Shown piece by piece: positions 14,592-26,437 of a stretch of 64,000 nt of DNA (position 1 is the stretch's first letter; the number at the start of each line of letters is the position of its first letter). Source of the DNA: a bacterium (GTDB lineage: Bacteria; Cyanobacteriota; Vampirovibrionia; Gastranaerophilales; Gastranaerophilaceae). The notes under the pieces were generated by a model that ran no database searches, was not told the origin of the DNA, and saw nothing but the letters and a program-made list of their open reading frames with translations. A program made the position numbers and the translations under genes. The stretch is from positions 62,001 to 126,000 of the forward strand of contig JAFXHF010000016.1 of the NCBI GenBank assembly GCA_017536545.1. Reading direction: 5' to 3'.

Positions 14592-15695
14592 ATGACAAAA
14601 AATAAACAATTTATTGTAGGACCAGTTGAATTATACCAAAATACACGAGATGTTTATCAAAAGAATTTTACATATTTTAGAACATCTGATTTTGGAGATA
14701 TGGTAAAAGCCTCAATAAAAGAACTAAACCATTTAGTAGGTAATGATTTAGAAAATTCTATGATTTATCTTACAGCATCAGGAACTGCTGCAATGGAAGC
14801 AGTGATTGAAAATTGTACAAATCCAACAGATAAAGCTATTGTCATTAATGGTGGTACATTTGGTCATAGATTCTGTGAACTTCTTGAGTACCACGATGTT
14901 GAATATACTGCAATCAATCTTGAATGGAATGAAACATTAACAATTGAACATTTAAAAGAATATGAAAATAAAGATTATACAATGCTTTTTGCAAATTTGC
15001 ATGAAACATCTACGGGGCAACTGTACGATATAAAAATGTTGAGTGAATTCGCAAAAAGAAATAACTTATTATTAGTTGTAGACGCTATTAGCACATTTTT
15101 AGCAGATGAATACAATATGAGTAAATACGGAATTGATACAACAATCATCAGCTCACAAAAAGGATTATGTTTATCTGCTGGATTATCATTTGTTTCATTT
15201 AGTCAAAGAATGTTAGATAAAATTTCTAATAAGGTTAAATCAGCATCAAAATATTTTGATTTCAAAGATTACTTAGTAAATATCACAAGAGGTCAAACTC
15301 CATATACTCCTGCAGTATTCATTATGTATGAGCTTCAAGATATGTTAGAACTTATCAAAATAGAAGGTGGGTTACAAGCTAGATTAGACTTTATTGAAAA
15401 GAAATGTAATTATTTCAGACAAAAAGTTAGTGAAATTGGGTTAAACATCCCTGATTATCCTCTATCTAATATGCTAACACCTATTATCTTTGAAGATATC
15501 AAAGCTAGTGATGTTATTAGAATTTTAAAAGATAAATATAATATTTTCGTAAATCCTTGTGGAGGCAAACTTGCAGACAAAATTATTAGAGTTTCACACA
15601 TAGGAAATACAACTCTTGAAGATATTGATAACTTAGTAGAAAAAATGCAATTAGCTATTGCTGAAGTTAAGGAGGCTCAATATGCTAGGAAATAA
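14592..15695 (+). CDS. Class V PLP-dependent aminotransferase
   Basis: Fold-type I aminotransferase of class V (alanine-glyoxylate, serine-glyoxylate and 2-aminoethylphosphonate-pyruvate transaminase relatives). The Schiff-base Lys is in SSQKGLCLSAGLS; the cofactor-binding Asp is in VVDAISTF; an N-terminal TASGTAAMEA loop binds PLP phosphate. I chose the ATG at 14592 because AAGGA at 14578-14582 is spaced nine bases from it and directly abuts the alternative TTG at 14583. Between a LicD gene and a cytidylyltransferase gene it probably makes the amine-bearing head group that is CDP-activated and transferred. A phosphonate route would need PEP mutase, which is not seen here. The specific substrate is unresolved. 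Confidence 0.85.
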   Translation: MTKNKQFIVGPVELYQNTRDVYQKNFTYFRTSDFGDMVKASIKELNHLVGNDLENSMIYLTASGTAAMEAVIENCTNPTDKAIVINGGTFGHRFCELLEYHDVEYTAINLEWNETLTIEHLKEYENKDYTMLFANLHETSTGQLYDIKMLSEFAKRNNLLLVVDAISTFLADEYNMSKYGIDTTIISSQKGLCLSAGLSFVSFSQRMLDKISNKVKSASKYFDFKDYLVNITRGQTPYTPAVFIMYELQDMLELIKIEGGLQARLDFIEKKCNYFRQKVSEIGLNIPDYPLSNMLTPIIFEDIKASDVIRILKDKYNIFVNPCGGKLADKIIRVSHIGNTTLEDIDNLVEKMQLAIAEVKEAQYARK

Positions 15696-16143
15696 AACTG
15701 TTGTTTATACTTCAGGAACTTTTGATATGTTGCATATCAATCACTTAAAAATGATTGAATACGCTAGAGCATTAGGAGATATCCTCATTGTAGGGGTTAA
15801 CACTGATGAATTGGTTGCTAGCTACAAATCAGAGCCTATTATTCCCTTTGAAGAGCGAATTGCATTAATGAAGGCTATTAAGGGGCCAGATATTGTTATT
15901 CCTCAACGTTCTTTAGATCATACAGATAAAGTTAAAAAATTGAATTTCGATATTTTTGTAGTTGGCGATGATTGGGTTGGTAAGTATGATTATTTAAAAG
16001 AGCAAGGTGTAGAAGTTGTTTATTTCCCATATGGTGCAGGTATAAGTTCTTCTGGTTTGAAGAAAAGAATATATAACAACTACAAAAAATTACAAGATAA
16101 AGCAAATAGTCACTTACCTGCTGATACGGAGATTAAAAAATAA
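15682..16143 (+). CDS. Cytidylyltransferase (TagD/GCT-like)
   Basis: Small nucleotidyltransferase that couples a phosphorylated alcohol or amino-alcohol to CTP. Motifs: TFDMLHINHLKMIEYA with the HxxH-type active site (HINH replacing the usual HxGH), a central FVVGDDWVGK and a C-terminal GISSSGLKKRI that corresponds to the R-x-GISTT signature of glycerol-3-phosphate cytidylyltransferase. The 153 residues match that family. The start ATG at 15682 follows a near-perfect TAAGGAGG by six bases; it overlaps the end of the aminotransferase by 14 bases. The next gene overlaps its stop by one base. In this operon it should make the CDP donor used by one or both LicD enzymes. Confidence 0.85.
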   Translation: MLGNKTVVYTSGTFDMLHINHLKMIEYARALGDILIVGVNTDELVASYKSEPIIPFEERIALMKAIKGPDIVIPQRSLDHTDKVKKLNFDIFVVGDDWVGKYDYLKEQGVEVVYFPYGAGISSSGLKKRIYNNYKKLQDKANSHLPADTEIKK

Positions 16144-19213: not shown

Positions 19214-21202
19214 ATGAATAGCTATTTTATCGGAATAATAATCCTGTTGTTGAGTGGATTTATTGCCGCAAGTTTTAGCAAAAATTTTAAAACAATTGTT
19301 TTGACAATTTTGAGTGCAATTGGCTCTGTATTTTGCTTAGTTCCTGCGTGTAATGTTTTATTAGGAAAAGATATTTTAGTTAAAACTTTTGACTTTAATG
19401 AATTATTCGGTGCGGTGAATTTTGTTATTGATCCACTTTCCGCATTTTTCATTATTGTAATTTGTGTGATGAGTTTTGTTTCAGTGGTTTATTCAAACGG
19501 ATATTTGAAACCTTATTTAGAATCAAAAAATATTAATTCTCACTTGGTATTTTTACCGATGTTAATTGCATCAATGCTTGCAGTTGTTACTTGTCAAAAC
19601 GCATTGATGTTTTTAATTTGTTGGGAAATAATGTCGTTAAGTTCATTTTTCCTTGTGATTTTTGAAAGTAATAAAAAAGAAGTTGTAAAGGCTGGTATTA
19701 AGTATTTAGTATTTATGCATGTATCAGTTTTATTTATTATTATTGCTTTTGCACTTCTATCAATCAAGGCTGGAAGTTTTGATTTTGCAGTATTTAAAGA
19801 TGTTTTAGCTCATAATAAATCACTAGCAAATGTCGTATTTTTATTGGCATTTGTTGGATTTGGTACAAAATCTGGTTTTGTACCTTTTCATAACTGGTTA
19901 CCTGATGCTCACCCAGCAGCACCATCACATGTTAGTGCGATTATGTCTGGGGTTATGATTAAGACTGGATTTTATGGAATTTTAAGAGGAATTGATTTAA
20001 TCGGTATTCCATCTAAAACAATTTCTTTTGTAGTCTTAACTATTGCTGGTATTTCAGCATTATATGGTATATTATACGCAATTACTCAGCATGATTTGAA
20101 AAGATTTTTGGCATATTCTTCAATTGAAAACGTTGGGGTAATTGGTATGGGTATTGGTGTTGGTATGTTAGGTATGGCATATCATAATCCTGCAGTTGCT
20201 TTGATTGGTTTAGTGGGTGGGATTTTCCATATTTTGAACCATTCTATTTTTAAAGAATTGATGTTTTTAACAGCAGGTAGCGTATATTTAAAAACTCATA
20301 CAAGAGATATTGAAATTATGGGTGGTCTTGCTAAGTCTATGCCAATAACTGCTGTATTATTTTTAATCGGTGCAGTTGCAATTTGTGGCTTGCCACCATT
20401 TAATGGATTTATAAGTGAATTTTTGATTTATTTTGGTATGTTTAAAGGTTTATCTATTAATAATTTTGAAGCTGTAATTGTTATGTTGTTTGCGATTTCA
20501 GCGTTGGCTTTTGTTGGCACAATGGCAATTTTATGTTTCACAAAAGCATTCAGTATTGTATTTTTAGGTTTACCAAGAAGTGAAAAAATCGCTCAAGTAA
20601 AAGAAGATTGTGAAAAAGTTATGTTAATCCCAATGGGATTTTTGGCAACTTTGATTTTATTTATCGGTATTTTTCCACAAAAAATTCTATTAAAGATTAA
20701 TAAAATTGTATTTTCTATAATCCCATCAACATCAATGAATGTATGGTCAGGTTGTTCTGAAATCTTTATGACAATTTTGACTATTGCGTTGGTTGTTGGT
20801 TGTTTTGCAGCATTTGTTTTAGTTTTAGTTGTTTTGAAATTGAGATTAACAAAATCAAAAATTCAAATGCACGAAACTTGGGGTTGTGGTTATGATAGAG
20901 CAAATAATCATATGCAATATACCGCTTCATCATACGCAAGCCCACTATTGTCAATGTTAAAACCTCTATTCAAAAAGGTTTTTGATGTTGAGAAACCAAG
21001 AAAACTATTCCCACATAGTGCTCACTTTAGTTTACAGTTTGAAGATATTGAGGAAGCATATGTAATCAATCCTTTATTAAAAATTGATGAGTGGTTTTTA
21101 TCAAAATTTGAAAGTTTACAAAGTGGAAATATCCAATCTTATATCAAATATGGTTTGATATTTTTGCTAATCGTAATCATTGGAAGTCTATTTATAGGAT
21201 AA
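19214..21202 (+). CDS. Hyf/Ehr-type antiporter-like membrane subunit (HyfB-like)
   Basis: Large proton-translocating subunit related to NuoL/Mrp antiporters. The 662 residues contain about 15 membrane segments. Family motifs are GFGTKSGFVPFHNWLPDAHPAAPSHVSA (here split as GFGTKSGFVPFHNWLPDA and PAAPSHVSAIMSG) with the proton-path Lys and His, plus KRFLAYSSIENVG. The C-terminal section HETWGCGYDRANNHMQYTASS is typical of HyfB/HycC rather than complex I NuoL. It is the first of six closely spaced genes in the order B-C-E-F-G-HI. The second antiporter-like subunit HyfD of E. coli is absent. It is likely to couple electron transfer in the peripheral arm to ion pumping. Confidence 0.9.
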   Translation: MNSYFIGIIILLLSGFIAASFSKNFKTIVLTILSAIGSVFCLVPACNVLLGKDILVKTFDFNELFGAVNFVIDPLSAFFIIVICVMSFVSVVYSNGYLKPYLESKNINSHLVFLPMLIASMLAVVTCQNALMFLICWEIMSLSSFFLVIFESNKKEVVKAGIKYLVFMHVSVLFIIIAFALLSIKAGSFDFAVFKDVLAHNKSLANVVFLLAFVGFGTKSGFVPFHNWLPDAHPAAPSHVSAIMSGVMIKTGFYGILRGIDLIGIPSKTISFVVLTIAGISALYGILYAITQHDLKRFLAYSSIENVGVIGMGIGVGMLGMAYHNPAVALIGLVGGIFHILNHSIFKELMFLTAGSVYLKTHTRDIEIMGGLAKSMPITAVLFLIGAVAICGLPPFNGFISEFLIYFGMFKGLSINNFEAVIVMLFAISALAFVGTMAILCFTKAFSIVFLGLPRSEKIAQVKEDCEKVMLIPMGFLATLILFIGIFPQKILLKINKIVFSIIPSTSMNVWSGCSEIFMTILTIALVVGCFAAFVLVLVVLKLRLTKSKIQMHETWGCGYDRANNHMQYTASSYASPLLSMLKPLFKKVFDVEKPRKLFPHSAHFSLQFEDIEEAYVINPLLKIDEWFLSKFESLQSGNIQSYIKYGLIFLLIVIIGSLFIG

Positions 21203-21208
21203 GTTGAA

Positions 21209-22126
21209 ATGATAATGAAATTGATAAATTTAATAATTCTTTTATTTGTTCCATTTTTAATGATGGGATTGATTAAGAAAACAAAATCATTCTGGGGTGG
21301 ACGAAAAGGGCCATCAATTATGCAACCTTGGTTTGATTTTGTCAGACTTATGAAAAAGGATTTTGTAATAAGTAATACAACATCAGCGGTATTTAAAATC
21401 ACTCCTGTTATTACATTTGCTAGTGTGATTTTTGCGGGGTTATTTGTACCTTTGGCAAGTGGTAGTGCGATTGTAAATATCCCAGTTGGATTGATTGTAT
21501 TTGCTTATATTTTAGGTTTAGGTAAGTTCTTTGCATTGATTTCAGCAATGGATACAGGAAGCAGTTTTGAAGGTATGGGGGCTTCTCGTGAGGCTTGTTT
21601 TACCTCAATTGTTGAGCCTGCATTTTTTATGGTAATCGGTTCAATTATGGCTTTGACTGGAAATTGTACTTTCGATTCTTTAGGTAAAATTTTATCAAGT
21701 GCAGGGACTTATGGAATTTTGATTATTGTATTCACTGCTTTAGTTTTATTTATCATGTTATTAACTGAGGGTTCAAGAGTTCCTGTTGATGATCCAGCAA
21801 CTCACTTGGAATTAACAATGATTCATGAAGTTATGATTTTAGATAACTCTGGTAGTGATTTAGCTTTATTAACTTGGGCAAATGGAATTAAGATGCTTTT
21901 GATTTCGTCTTTAATTGCTTATATGGTTATCCCAAGTAATGTTTCAGATTTTGTAGGTGTATTGCTTTATTTGGGAGTAATCGCACTACTTTCAGTGATT
22001 ATAGGTACTGTTGAATCTAGTATGGCAAGAATAAGAATGTCACACGTTTTTGAATTTGTATTTATTATGAGTTCATTAGCACTTGTTGTTTTATCTCTTG
22101 TTATGGCAAGGATGTTTGGAGGTTAA
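21209..22126 (+). CDS. HyfC/NuoH-like membrane subunit
   Basis: Membrane anchor subunit related to NuoH/HycD. It joins the hydrophilic module to the membrane arm. Typical stretches are KTKSFWGGRKGPSIMQPWFD at the N-terminus, DTGSSFEGMGASREA in the first cytoplasmic loop and EGSRVPVDDPATHLELTMIH in the central loop, which carries the conserved acidic residues. The 305 residues with about eight membrane segments agree with the family. It starts six bases after hyfB and ends one base before the next start. Confidence 0.92.
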   Translation: MIMKLINLIILLFVPFLMMGLIKKTKSFWGGRKGPSIMQPWFDFVRLMKKDFVISNTTSAVFKITPVITFASVIFAGLFVPLASGSAIVNIPVGLIVFAYILGLGKFFALISAMDTGSSFEGMGASREACFTSIVEPAFFMVIGSIMALTGNCTFDSLGKILSSAGTYGILIIVFTALVLFIMLLTEGSRVPVDDPATHLELTMIHEVMILDNSGSDLALLTWANGIKMLLISSLIAYMVIPSNVSDFVGVLLYLGVIALLSVIIGTVESSMARIRMSHVFEFVFIMSSLALVVLSLVMARMFGG

Positions 22127-22127
22127 G

Positions 22128-22778
22128 ATGGCAACAGGATTTATTATTCTTTTCGGATTAACAATGTTATATTTAGCCGCAACAAGCAGAATTATTGCAC
22201 ATATCAGAATTTTAATCGTGCAAGGATTTTTGTTATTTTTAATTTGTTGCTGTGGAATGGAACATAATAATTGGTTAAACTTTGCGTTTTTAACAGTTGA
22301 AACTTTGGTTGTAAAATCAATTGTTATTCCTTGGTTTCTGTACAAGGTTACTAAGAAAACTCATTCAAATCGTGACGTTGCAGCAAATATCCCACATTTT
22401 TATTGTTTGGTAATTGCAACATTGATTTTGTTGGGTGGATTTTTGGCATCAAATTATTATTTCTCATCAATGAAAATGATTGCTCCGATTTATTTTGGGG
22501 TTTCAGTTGCAACAATTATTATCAGCTTATGGCTTATTACAATTAAGCATAAAATTATTTCTAACGTAATTGAATTTATTACAATGGAAAATGGTATTTT
22601 CTTATTATCTTTATCAGTATCAAAAGAGATGCCAATGTTAGTTAATATGGGTGTTTTACTTGACGTATTTATTGCGGTTTATATCTTAGGATTGTTCGTA
22701 AATGAAATTAATAAAGAGTTTAACGACCTTGAAGTTTCTCACTTATCAGATTTAAAGGATTATGAATATAATGATTAG
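22128..22778 (+). CDS. HyfE-like membrane subunit (NuoK-related)
   Basis: Small hydrophobic subunit of about 216 residues with roughly six membrane segments, positioned as HyfE in group 4 hydrogenase and hydrogenase-related operons. It corresponds to NuoK plus an extension. ITMENGIFLLSLSVSKEMP resembles the conserved NuoK/HyfE segment containing the membrane Glu. I chose the ATG at 22128 because GGAGG lies just upstream and it begins right after the HyfC stop; an earlier in-frame start would lie inside hyfC. The next gene overlaps its 3' end. Confidence 0.85.
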   Translation: MATGFIILFGLTMLYLAATSRIIAHIRILIVQGFLLFLICCCGMEHNNWLNFAFLTVETLVVKSIVIPWFLYKVTKKTHSNRDVAANIPHFYCLVIATLILLGGFLASNYYFSSMKMIAPIYFGVSVATIIISLWLITIKHKIISNVIEFITMENGIFLLSLSVSKEMPMLVNMGVLLDVFIAVYILGLFVNEINKEFNDLEVSHLSDLKDYEYND

Positions 22779-24198
22779 TACAATTTTAATATTTCCAATA
22801 GTTGCATGTTTTTTGGTAATGCTTGTTAAGAAAAAAGCATTTGCAACTTTTATGGTGAATGCTTATTCTATTATTCACTTTGTTTGCACTTTATTATTGG
22901 TAACAGGTGTTGGAAATAAATCAGTTCCATATTTTGCCGTTGATAGCACAAATTCAATATTTTTACTTGTATTATCTTTGGTATTTTTAATGGTTGCGAT
23001 GTATAACACAGGTTATGTAAGACATCTAGATGTTAGTGATAAAAAATTATGCCATTATTCATTTATGATTTTGGTATTTGTTTTATCAATGACTGGAACT
23101 CTATTGAGTACAGATTTAGGTATTTCTTGGATTTTGATTGAGGGAACTACTTTATCTAGTGCGTACTTGATTTATTTTAATAAAACAAAACACTCAATTG
23201 AGGCAGCTTGGAAATATGTATTTATCTGTTCAATTGGGATTGCGTTAGCATTTGTTGGAATTATTTTGTTGAATATTTCATCAGGTGCGGTAAACTCAAT
23301 GAGTTTTGCCGAATTGTATAGACACGCATCAGAGTTTGATTTGATGTGGTTGAAGCTAGCCTTTGTATTTATGCTATTTGGTTTTGGTGCAAAAATGGGA
23401 TTGGCTCCTGCACATTTCTGGTTGCCTGATGCTCACTCAGAAGCTCCATCTCCAATTTCAGCATTGTTATCAGCTACATTATTAAACTCAGCGTTCTTAG
23501 TTATTGTAAGAGTTTTTAAAATAATGGAATTAGCTAATTGTACAAATTATGCAAGATTGATGTTACTTGTAATGGGATTTTTATCATTATTTGTGACTGC
23601 AGTTTTTGTATATCATATTAAAAATTACAAAAGAATGTTGGCTTATTCTTCAATTGAAAATATGGGAATTTTAGCTATTGGTATGGCATTAGGTGGAGTA
23701 GCTTATTATGCAGTTGTGTTGCATTTGATTGGGCATTCACTTGCGAAAGCATCATTCTTTTTAACTTCAGGAAATATTTTAGAATTATTTGAAACAAAAA
23801 GAATAAAATCTGTTAAAGGTTTAAATAGTGCAGATAGCAAAACTTGTTGGTTGTGGGTGGCATCATTTCTGGCAATTTGTGCTTTCCCAACATCATTATT
23901 GTTTATTAGTGAATTTATAATGATTAAGACAATGATTTTAGATAAACACTATGTTTTATGTGGTTTGTTTGTATTCCTTTTAACAATTATTCTTTATGGT
24001 ATTGGTAGGGTTGTTATTAAGATGGCTTTTGATGAATTGAGTGAAAATAAGGCAAAAGTTGTTGAGAAAAATATAAACAAAGTTTCAATTTTAATGTATG
24101 TTCCGCAAGTAATATTACTTGTTATGGTGTTCACTTTTGGGATTTATATTCCACAGTGGTTAAATGAGATTATCAAACTTGCAGCAGGAACTTTTTAA
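22771..24198 (+). CDS. HyfF/NuoN-like antiporter-like membrane subunit
   Basis: Second antiporter-like subunit of the complex, with about 14 membrane segments. It has GFGAKMGLAPAHFWLPDA followed by SEAPSPISALLSA and KRMLAYSSIENMG, the equivalents of the proton-channel Lys/His segments in NuoN/HyfF. The 475 residues match HyfF. Two start codons are possible: 22762 (AAAGGA only two bases away) and 22771 (11 bases away). I prefer 22771, without certainty; either overlaps hyfE. It shares several motifs with the first antiporter-like subunit, as expected for paralogous pump modules. Confidence 0.88.
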   Translation: MISTILIFPIVACFLVMLVKKKAFATFMVNAYSIIHFVCTLLLVTGVGNKSVPYFAVDSTNSIFLLVLSLVFLMVAMYNTGYVRHLDVSDKKLCHYSFMILVFVLSMTGTLLSTDLGISWILIEGTTLSSAYLIYFNKTKHSIEAAWKYVFICSIGIALAFVGIILLNISSGAVNSMSFAELYRHASEFDLMWLKLAFVFMLFGFGAKMGLAPAHFWLPDAHSEAPSPISALLSATLLNSAFLVIVRVFKIMELANCTNYARLMLLVMGFLSLFVTAVFVYHIKNYKRMLAYSSIENMGILAIGMALGGVAYYAVVLHLIGHSLAKASFFLTSGNILELFETKRIKSVKGLNSADSKTCWLWVASFLAICAFPTSLLFISEFIMIKTMILDKHYVLCGLFVFLLTIILYGIGRVVIKMAFDELSENKAKVVEKNINKVSILMYVPQVILLVMVFTFGIYIPQWLNEIIKLAAGTF

Positions 24199-24211
24199 GG
24201 CAGGATAAATT

Positions 24212-25681
24212 ATGGTTAAATGGATTAAAGTTAAAAACAATACAAGAATAGATATAAATAAGATTCCTATTATTGAAATCTCTGATATGCGAAGCGAGGT
24301 TAAAGCTTTCAATTTACGACCTATCGGATTTTTTGGTAAAGAATGGGGATTTGGTTGCGTAAGATTGTTTGTAATTTTAGCTGATGATGCTAATGCAGAC
24401 TTGTATTTGTCTTCTAGCGTTTTTGGTAATGACGTGAAATCTTATGAATCATTTACTCAAGAAGTTCCTGCTTTTCATATTTTTGAAAGAGAATTTTATG
24501 AGCAGTTTGGGATTGAACCATTGCATCATCCTTGGTTAAAACCAGTTAGGGTGAACCAAGACAAATATCCATTTTTTGAAATGGAAGGTGAAGAAGTTCA
24601 CCAAGTTGCAGTTGGCCCAATTCACGCAGGTGTAATTGAGCCTGGGCACTTTAGATTTATGTGTAATGGTGAAACTGTTTACCATTTAGAAATTATGCTT
24701 GGCTATCAACATCGTGGAGTTGAAGATATGATGTTGAAAAATCCATCAAATCAACTCGCAGAATCAATTTGTGGGGATAGTGTAATTGCATATAATACAG
24801 CATATTCTCAAGTTATGGAAACATTAAAAGCTATAAACATTTCTAGAAAAGCTCAACTTATTAGAAAAATGGCACTAGAAATGGAAAGGATTGCTGTCCA
24901 TATTGGTGATTTAGGAGCAATTTCAGGTGATATTGCTTATTTGATGGGGGCTTCTGTTTTTGGAGCAACAAGAACCCTTGTTATCAATACAACTTTAGAG
25001 ATGTGCGGTAGTAGATTGGGTCGTGGTTTTGTAACTGTTGGTGGTGTTAATTATGATCCATCAGAGGAGGTTATCGACCGTGCTGTTGAAACTTTGAATA
25101 AAGTTAGAACTGATGTAGATAGAATGGTAAAAACTATGCTTAAAAACTCTACTGTAATGTCTAGATTAGAAAAAACAGGTACAGTAAGTTTGGAAAAAGC
25201 AAAAGATATTGGGCTTGTTGGTATGGCAGCAAGAACTTGTGGTGTTGATTTAGATTCACGTTTTGATTTCCCAGACAAATGGGTTGAAGAATTAGGGTTT
25301 ACTCGTAAAACAATGAACCTTAAAGGGGATGTTAATGCTCGTTTCAAACTTAGATATAAAGAAATCAAAGAATCTATTTCAATGGTTAAAAAGATTTTAG
25401 CTAAGTTGAAAGAATATAAAAACGAACCAATTATTGCAGAAGGCGTGAATAACAAACTCACTCCAGATTCAATGGTAATCTCTATTGTTGAGGGTTGGAG
25501 AGGTGAAGTTGTGCATATTGCTATGACTGATCTTCATGGAAAAATGACACGATATAAAATTAAAGACCCATCATTTAATAATTGGTATGGATTAGGTTTA
25601 GCGGTTAGAAACAACGGAATTTCAGATTTCCCACTATGTAATAAAAGTTTCAATTTATCATATTGCGGAAATGATTTATAA
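24212..25681 (+). CDS. Hydrogenase-like large subunit lacking two nickel cysteines (Ehr-type, HyfG-like)
   Basis: Fusion of a NuoC-like domain (residues 1-125; FEREFYEQFGIEPLHHP) and a NuoD/hydrogenase large-subunit domain. In true [NiFe] hydrogenases two CxxC pairs hold the metal centre. Here the first reads ESICGDSVIAYN and the second DFPLCNKSFNLSYCGNDL, so both are CxxS and there is no maturation peptide after the second. This pattern, with NKSFNLSY at the C-terminus, is what I know from energy-converting hydrogenase-related (Ehr) complexes, which are thought not to bind Ni-Fe. The Cys at the first position of each motif is unusual even for that group as I remember it. H2 chemistry is therefore unlikely. 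The natural electron acceptor or donor of such complexes is unknown. Confidence 0.88.
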   Translation: MVKWIKVKNNTRIDINKIPIIEISDMRSEVKAFNLRPIGFFGKEWGFGCVRLFVILADDANADLYLSSSVFGNDVKSYESFTQEVPAFHIFEREFYEQFGIEPLHHPWLKPVRVNQDKYPFFEMEGEEVHQVAVGPIHAGVIEPGHFRFMCNGETVYHLEIMLGYQHRGVEDMMLKNPSNQLAESICGDSVIAYNTAYSQVMETLKAINISRKAQLIRKMALEMERIAVHIGDLGAISGDIAYLMGASVFGATRTLVINTTLEMCGSRLGRGFVTVGGVNYDPSEEVIDRAVETLNKVRTDVDRMVKTMLKNSTVMSRLEKTGTVSLEKAKDIGLVGMAARTCGVDLDSRFDFPDKWVEELGFTRKTMNLKGDVNARFKLRYKEIKESISMVKKILAKLKEYKNEPIIAEGVNNKLTPDSMVISIVEGWRGEVVHIAMTDLHGKMTRYKIKDPSFNNWYGLGLAVRNNGISDFPLCNKSFNLSYCGNDL

Positions 25682-25693
25682 GGAAAGAAAATT

Positions 25694-26437
25694 ATGTTTG
25701 ATACATTAAAATCAAGAATTTATCAAGGTAGTCAATTTATAAAAGATATAGAAAACGCTCCAATGCGAGAACAATTTAGAGGTTTTCCAAAGTTTAATGC
25801 TGGTGAAGATTTCTCAGCTTGCAAAGATGTTTGTCCAACAGGAGCTTTGTCTTTAGAGCCATTATCAATTGATATGGGCAAATGTACATTCTGTGGTGCT
25901 TGTGAAAGAGTTTGTAAAGGGATTGAACTTACAAACGGTTATAAATTGGCATCTTCTTCTCGTGAAAAACTTGTAATTACACCAGAGGTTGATTATGAAA
26001 ATTATCTAAAATCAGCGGTTGAAGTTAGAGAAGAAATTCATAAAATTTTTGGCCGTTCAATTAAATTCCGTCAAGTATCAGCAGGGGGTTGTAATGGATG
26101 CGAGATGGAATTGAACGCTTGTTCAAACGTAAACTTTGATATGGGAAGATACGGAATTGAGTTTGTGGCATCTCCTCGTCATGCAGATGGTATTGTAATC
26201 ACAGGACCAATCACAGAAAATATGGCATACGCTTTAGAAGATTGTTATAAATCTGTACCTGATCCAAAAGTTGTGGTACTTTGTGGTGCGTGTGCTATTT
26301 CTGGTGGAGTTTTCCAAGAAAGTGAAAAATTAAATAGAGAATTTTTGGAAAAATATCCGATAGATTTGTATATTCCAGGATGTCCAACTCACCCATTAAC
26401 ATTTATCAATGCGGTTTTGAGTTTTATAAAAAAATAG
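25694..26437 (+). CDS. Fused ferredoxin and NuoB-like small subunit (HyfH-HyfI-like)
   Basis: A 247-residue iron-sulfur subunit joining two modules that are separate in E. coli. The N-terminal half is ferredoxin-like with CKDVCPTGAL and a full CTFCGACERVC set. The C-terminal half is the NuoB/hydrogenase small subunit with GGCNGCEMEL, CGACAISGG and PGCPTHP, which ligate the proximal [4Fe-4S] cluster. The cluster-binding residues are intact, in contrast to the altered metal site of the large subunit, so the complex should still carry electrons. It is the last gene of the operon and ends ten bases from a convergent gene. Confidence 0.9.
   Translation: MFDTLKSRIYQGSQFIKDIENAPMREQFRGFPKFNAGEDFSACKDVCPTGALSLEPLSIDMGKCTFCGACERVCKGIELTNGYKLASSSREKLVITPEVDYENYLKSAVEVREEIHKIFGRSIKFRQVSAGGCNGCEMELNACSNVNFDMGRYGIEFVASPRHADGIVITGPITENMAYALEDCYKSVPDPKVVVLCGACAISGGVFQESEKLNREFLEKYPIDLYIPGCPTHPLTFINAVLSFIKK

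What the first reader, a model, noticed from the sequence alone, without database searches (positions are those of the whole stretch)
24212..26437. Hyf-like complex whose large subunit has CxxS in place of both nickel-binding CxxC pairs
ESICGDSV and DFPLCNKSF replace the canonical motifs, and the C-terminus NKSFNLSY matches what I know from Ehr complexes. The iron-sulfur subunit is intact and all pump subunits are present, so an ion-pumping redox complex with an unknown partner is likely. Keeping one Cys at each motif, at positions that are usually Ala and Ile in Ehr as I recall, is odd and may mean a different metal site or an evolutionary intermediate.
Basis: partly seen in the sequence, partly recalled or inferred. 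Interest (0 to 1): 0.7.

Follow-up and report, generated by a model that had tools for sequence, protein, structure and literature searches.

The report
Hydrogenase-like ion pump without nickel site
A gut relative of cyanobacteria carries a six-subunit membrane complex that looks like a hydrogen-making ion pump but has lost its nickel-iron site; this is a member of a known, poorly understood group (Ehr), already noticed in these bacteria, and probably an electron-driven ion pump of unknown electron acceptor.

Summary
The complex is real, but the motif reading is half wrong. Window 19214-26437 is a six-gene operon (HyfB, C, E, F, G and a ferredoxin-HyfI fusion) in a Gastranaerophilales (Melainabacteria) genome. 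In the large subunit the first CxxC is C187-G-D-S190, as reported. The second is not CNKS (476-479): two alignments place the ligand cysteines at S483 and G486 (NLSYCG), and cysteine-intact cousins in the same class read NKSFNLCYAC. So one of four ligand cysteines remains, and it is not fixed (C, N, V or S among close relatives). The tree puts the protein inside a clade that all lacks CxxC (Ehr-like), so Cys187 is best read as regained, not as an intermediate. HypD is absent in 60 of 60 family genomes; HypF, complex I, Rnf and menaquinone genes (MenD over cut-off, MqnA) are absent in this one. It is therefore not a [NiFe] hydrogenase. One ferredoxin cluster, the proximal cluster and key pump residues are conserved, so a ferredoxin-fed ion pump with an unknown acceptor is most likely. 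Di Rienzi 2013 already reported such a six-subunit complex. More surprising, in passing: cousins that keep both CxxC pairs but lost the proximal cluster and HypD.

The parts
19214..21202 (+). HyfB-like antiporter subunit (662 aa)
   Evidence: NF005086 hydrogenase 4 subunit B 595 bits (below its cut-off of 667), Proton_antipo_M; E/K/K/H/E antiporter residues conserved
21209..22126 (+). HyfC/NuoH-like membrane anchor (305 aa)
   Evidence: PF00146 NADHdh 114 bits; aligned with NuoH
22128..22778 (+). HyfE-like membrane subunit (216 aa from ATG at 22128)
   Evidence: NF008556 hydrogenase 4 membrane subunit, below cut-off; conserved in nearly all loci with the upstream DNA
22762..24198 (+). HyfF-like antiporter subunit (478 aa)
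   Evidence: NF005044 hydrogenase 4 subunit F 322 bits, below cut-off; TM5 Glu, TM7 Lys, TM11 His, TM12 Glu conserved, TM8 Lys is Asn
24212..25681 (+). HyfG/EhrL-like large subunit with fused 30-kDa (NuoC-like) N-terminal domain (489 aa)
   Evidence: PF00346 and PF00329; best PDB relative HycE 7z0s, Z 33.6, rmsd 2.6 over 423 residues
24638..24640 (+). E143, equals HycE E193 (proton-donor Glu of hydrogenases); Gly in NuoD
   Evidence: role of E193 from PMC9474812
24770..24781 (+). C187-G-D-S190 in place of the N-terminal CxxC (HycE C241/C244)
25637..25648 (+).
25658..25669 (+). S483-Y-C-G486, the true counterpart of the C-terminal CxxC (HycE C531/C534)
25694..26437 (+). HyfH-HyfI fusion: N-terminal ferredoxin domain plus NuoB/HyfI-like small subunit (247 aa)
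   Evidence: PF00037, PF01058; HycF- and MbhJ/HycG-like segments
25832..25903 (+). C47, C64, C67, C70: ligands for one [4Fe-4S] of the ferredoxin domain; the second cluster is incomplete
   Evidence: conserved in 80-81 of 81 rows; C43 only 38 of 81, C74 70 of 81
26090..26383 (+). C133, C136, C200, C230: proximal (N2-like) [4Fe-4S] ligands, hydrogenase-type CxxC spacing
   Evidence: 80 of 80 rows; ungapped alignment to MbhJ of 6cfw

Best explanation
It is an Ehr-type complex: a group 4 hydrogenase relative that has lost the nickel-iron site. Shown: six intact genes, one conserved ferredoxin-type cluster, a conserved proximal cluster, conserved antiporter residues, loss of three of four nickel ligands, no HypD and no HypF in the genome. 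Inferred: reduced ferredoxin made by pyruvate:ferredoxin oxidoreductase gives electrons to the ferredoxin domain fused to the small subunit; they pass to the proximal cluster and reduce a small acceptor that enters the emptied nickel-iron cavity, with E143 able to supply a proton; the redox step drives H+ or Na+ through HyfC, HyfB and HyfF. The acceptor and the direction (pumping, or pmf-driven ferredoxin reduction) are not known.
For: Ligand positions C187, S190, S483, G486. The tree places it in a clade without CxxC, 99/94, or 94/87 without the motif columns. HypD 0 of 60 family genomes, HypF_C 0 of 12 genomes. Proximal and ferredoxin cluster cysteines conserved. Antiporter residues conserved. 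The six-gene operon is kept in nearly all loci with enough upstream DNA, with no further conserved neighbour, so no dedicated dehydrogenase is encoded alongside. Variovorax carries the same six-gene layout with the same fusion on a plasmid. POR family genes present, Rnf and complex I absent. HycE E193 and canopy Arg equivalents kept as E143 and R430.
Against: No biochemistry was found for this clade. The acceptor is unknown; complex I quinone residues (Nqo4 H38, Y87) are I142 and G188 here and no MenD over cut-off or MqnA was found. The canopy Asp, described as strictly conserved in the superfamily (PMC9474812), is N481 here. Other species of the same genus lack the complex, so it is dispensable. 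Relatives outside the family (f3 loci, Allomeiothermus) lost the proximal cluster but kept the pump, so redox activity is not required in all such complexes.
Confidence: 0.6

Rival explanations
1. Redox-inert Mrp-like antiporter: the hydrogenase-like arm is a structural or regulatory remnant and the membrane arm exchanges Na+ and H+.
For: Relatives outside the family lost the proximal-cluster ligands yet keep the six-gene set (f3 loci L107-L110, Allomeiothermus L092). No acceptor can be named for the window's genome.
Against: In the window's own lineage all four proximal ligands are kept in 80 of 80 rows and one ferredoxin cluster in 80-81 of 81, which is unexpected if electrons no longer flow.
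Confidence: 0.15
2. Quinone-reducing complex in the manner of complex I, using scavenged (demethyl)menaquinone.
For: A lone MenA-like prenyltransferase is present and could prenylate scavenged DHNA; the cavity is homologous to the quinone site.
Against: H38 and Y87 of Nqo4 are not conserved; no MenD over cut-off or MqnA; UbiA-family genes are also in relatives without the complex; published reconstructions find no respiratory chain in gut members (PMC3787301, PMC4040986).
Confidence: 0.17
3. A new metal or sulfur site formed by C187, C476 and C485 (perhaps C151), or an evolutionary intermediate.
For: C476 and C151 are invariant in the family and C187 and C485 common.
Against: C187 is N, V or S and C485 S or A in close relatives with otherwise the same protein; C476 is not at a ligand position; parsimony favours regain of C187. 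The predicted model is below pLDDT 50 at 469-489, so geometry could not be tested.
Confidence: 0.06
4. A working [NiFe] hydrogenase with altered ligands.
For: Nearest solved relative is HycE; Soo 2014 lists NiFe hydrogenases in koala Gastranaerophilales (PMC4040986).
Against: Three of four ligands replaced; no HypD or HypF; the genome has three [FeFe]-hydrogenase family genes instead.
Confidence: 0.02

Closest known systems
Ehr (energy-converting hydrogenase-related) complexes, as in Melainabacteria, Riflemargulisbacteria, Nitrospira and Geobacter
   Same: Group 4 (4f-like) relatives lacking the CxxC motifs, with Hyf-type membrane subunits (PMC6349859, PMC10284858, PMC7894505). Di Rienzi 2013 (PMC3787301) reports a six-subunit membrane NiFe hydrogenase lacking the required motifs in Melainabacteria.
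   Different: Small subunit fused to a one-cluster ferredoxin domain; Ser in place of the Arg that precedes the first motif by two residues; Cys187 regained in most members of the family.
E. coli formate hydrogenlyase / hydrogenase 4 (HycE, HyfG)
   Same: Closest solved structure, same subunit types, fused 30-kDa domain
   Different: HycE has both CxxC pairs and a separate HycF; here neither pair is complete, the ferredoxin domain is fused, and no HycI- or formate dehydrogenase-like gene lies next to the operon
MBS sulfane reductase of Pyrococcus
   Same: [NiFe] site lost, two stray cysteines kept, proximal cluster acts on the substrate there (PMC7684303)
   Different: MBS lacks the Glu equivalent to E143 and has a shortened proximal-cluster loop; here the loop aligns ungapped with MbhJ
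Respiratory complex I (NuoD/NuoB)
   Same: Homologous core
   Different: Tree places NuoD outside; no H38/Y87 equivalents; CxxC instead of tandem CC in the small subunit

Membership tests
Ehr complexes | Large subunit of the group 4 hydrogenase family lacking the Ni-binding CxxC motifs | tested here: met
   C187/S190/S483/G486 at the ligand positions
Ehr complexes | Hyf/Mrp-like membrane subunits and small subunit in one operon | tested here: met
Ehr complexes | Clusters with other motif-less group 4 relatives | tested here: met
   99/94 and 94/87 clade with plasmid-borne GD[ST] proteins
Ehr complexes | Direct kinship with a named reference such as Geobacter EhrL | not tested
Group 4 [NiFe] hydrogenase | Two CxxC pairs ligating [NiFe] | tested here: not met
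Group 4 [NiFe] hydrogenase | Hyp maturation genes in the genome | tested here: not met
   HypD absent, HypF_C absent
Group 4 [NiFe] hydrogenase | Proximal [4Fe-4S] ligands in the small subunit | tested here: met
   C133, C136, C200, C230
Complex I | Quinone head-group residues (Nqo4 H38, Y87) | tested here: not met
   I142 and G188
Complex I | NuoEFG NADH module in the operon | tested here: not met
   six genes only, no such neighbour
MBS sulfane reductase | Proximal-cluster loop three residues shorter than in MBH | tested here: not met
   ungapped alignment with MbhJ over the loop; criterion from PMC7684303
MBS sulfane reductase | Absence of the MbhL E21 (HycE E193) equivalent | tested here: not met
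   E143 present in all rows

The most novel reading that the evidence does not exclude
In Gastranaerophilales the emptied nickel-iron cavity has been refitted with new cysteines (C187, C485, C476, C151) that bind a sulfur species or metal, making a ferredoxin-driven ion pump with a new catalytic site.
Probability: 0.06. Interest if true: 0.7.

Novelty: new member of a known kind. Interest (0 to 1): 0.32.

Why it matters
Ehr complexes are widespread but none has a known reaction in the papers read. Here is one in an organism where no Hyp genes, complex I, Rnf or menaquinone pathway was found, with its own fused ferredoxin domain: a clean case for asking what the complex reduces. It also suggests that 'NiFe hydrogenases' reported for koala Gastranaerophilales (PMC4040986) may be Ehr complexes that cannot make or use H2; those genomes themselves were not examined.

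Tried and rejected
True CxxC pairs elsewhere in the large subunit that could serve as the nickel motifs: none at the aligned positions. A dedicated partner gene next to the operon: flanks are not conserved. Cysteine geometry from AlphaFold2: the C-terminus 469-489 is below pLDDT 50, so not usable, although the fold matches HycE at Z 33.6. A hairpin after the operon is no stronger than shuffles. First HycE numbering was off by an internal tag and was redone. NCBIfam hits to NuoD and Hyf models lie below their cut-offs, so names rest on alignment and tree, not on those models.

Full report
The window lies in a 99% complete, 1.9-Mb genome (G000:C15). The 55 close relatives found by tblastn come, wherever the record names an organism group, from Gastranaerophilales or Melainabacteria. 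The operon at 19214-26437 encodes HyfB, HyfC, HyfE, HyfF, a large subunit with fused 30-kDa domain, and a small subunit with a fused ferredoxin domain. The same six genes in the same order occur in nearly all loci that hold enough upstream DNA (one exception, L036), and nothing else is conserved around them among the genes tested.

Ligand positions. An alignment of 117 sequences places HycE C241, C244, C531 and C534 on C187, S190, S483 and G486. A profile of 35 family members aligned to the 7z0s chain gives the same C-terminal register. The clearest proof is in four genomes of another family (f3) of the same class, which read CGMC and NKSFNLCYACVDR. Position 187 is C in 67 of 74 family rows and N, V or S in 7; S/T190 (74 of 74), S483 and G486 (72 of 72) are fixed and D189 nearly so (73 of 74). 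Some rows are near-duplicates of one another.

Phylogeny. A maximum-likelihood tree (LG+C20) of 63 sequences puts the window protein in a clade in which no member has CxxC pairs (99/94), next to the f3 proteins, with HycE/HyfG, MbhL and NuoD outside. Removing the motif columns leaves the same picture (94/87). On that tree Cys187 needs 8 changes with regain allowed or 11 independent losses without it, seven of them outside the window's main family group. A retained intermediate is the less likely reading. Long branches (L124, L094, L091, L092) make the placements of those rows unsure.

Other site residues. E143 (HycE E193, proton donor), R430 (canopy Arg), H230, E384 and R341 are kept; the canopy Asp is N481; the Arg two residues before the first motif is S185; Nqo4 H38 and Y87 are I142 and G188. 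Functional roles are from PMC9474812 and PMC7684303.

Iron-sulfur path. C133, C136, C200 and C230 (proximal cluster) are kept in 80 of 80 family rows. C47, C64, C67 and C70 give one [4Fe-4S] in the ferredoxin domain; cysteines for the second are incomplete. The small subunit aligns without gaps to MbhJ across CxxC, unlike the shortened MBS loop. Antiporter Glu and Lys residues are present in HyfB and HyfF, except TM8 Lys in HyfF (Asn).

Genome context. HypD is absent in 60 of 60 family genomes (controls ring in E. coli and three others); HypF_C is absent in 12 of 12 genomes tested. There is one PF00346 gene, so no complex I; no Rnf; no MenD over cut-off and no MqnA; a lone MenA-like prenyltransferase. 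Two POR-type genes and three [FeFe]-hydrogenase-family genes, one in a HydABC-like trimer, are the likely handlers of ferredoxin and H2. Within the genus the complex is patchy: 4 genomes have it and at least 13 do not.

Known work. Di Rienzi 2013 (PMC3787301) lists a six-subunit membrane NiFe hydrogenase lacking the motifs in Melainabacteria; Matheus Carnevali 2019 (PMC6349859) places Melainabacteria Ehr in a tree; PMC10284858 describes Ehr as close to 4f but without CxxC and of unknown function; proteomics in Geobacter links Ehr to formate (PMC7894505). So the class of object is known; the motif details, the fusion and the regain of Cys187 are additions made here.

Mechanism. Shown: the parts listed. 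Inferred from the families: ferredoxin to the fused domain to the proximal cluster to an acceptor in the former nickel-iron cavity, coupled to ion transport. MBS is the precedent for a proximal cluster acting on a substrate after nickel loss, and there the two leftover cysteines are dispensable (PMC7684303). The acceptor is unknown.

Noticed in passing
L107:8193-15397, and L108, L109, L110 (genomes G262, G137, G147, G266): Cousin six-gene complexes in another family of the same class keep both CxxC pairs (CGMC, NLCYAC) but their small subunit lost the proximal-cluster ligands (Cys to E, G, N/D), canopy Arg/Asp are Lys/Asn, and the genomes lack HypD and HypF_C. This is the reverse of the window's case; function unexplained.
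   Followed up: partly
L107:7030-8214 and 15404-15727; L109:1552-1938: The f3 operon is preceded by an ArsR-like regulator in L107 and L109, and in L107 is followed, overlapping the small-subunit gene, by a gene that looks like a Na+/H+ antiporter (by eye).
   Followed up: no
L092:3960-11135 (Allomeiothermus silvanus plasmid pMESIL01): Ehr-like operon whose small subunit lost all four proximal-cluster cysteines but keeps the ferredoxin-domain cluster; the large subunit has GE instead of GD[ST].
   Followed up: no
L091:3917-11201 and L131:770-7954 (Variovorax sp. PBL-E5 plasmid 3): Two different Ehr-like operons about 3 kb apart on one plasmid of a soil bacterium; one has the same ferredoxin fusion as the window.
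   Followed up: partly
L036:1-10212: Locus with large and small subunit genes but no pump subunits found upstream; either a true loss or an assembly fault.
   Followed up: partly
G000:C16:7473-8432 (L142): Lone MenA-like prenyltransferase without MenD over cut-off or MqnA; possible use of scavenged DHNA. UbiA-family genes occur in all other family genomes tested.
   Followed up: partly
L118:6235-11206: Cluster of a monomeric B1-type [FeFe] hydrogenase, a second hydrogenase-like protein with a C-terminal region that looks like a sensor domain, a phosphatase-like protein and a thioredoxin-like [2Fe-2S] protein (last three by eye).
   Followed up: no
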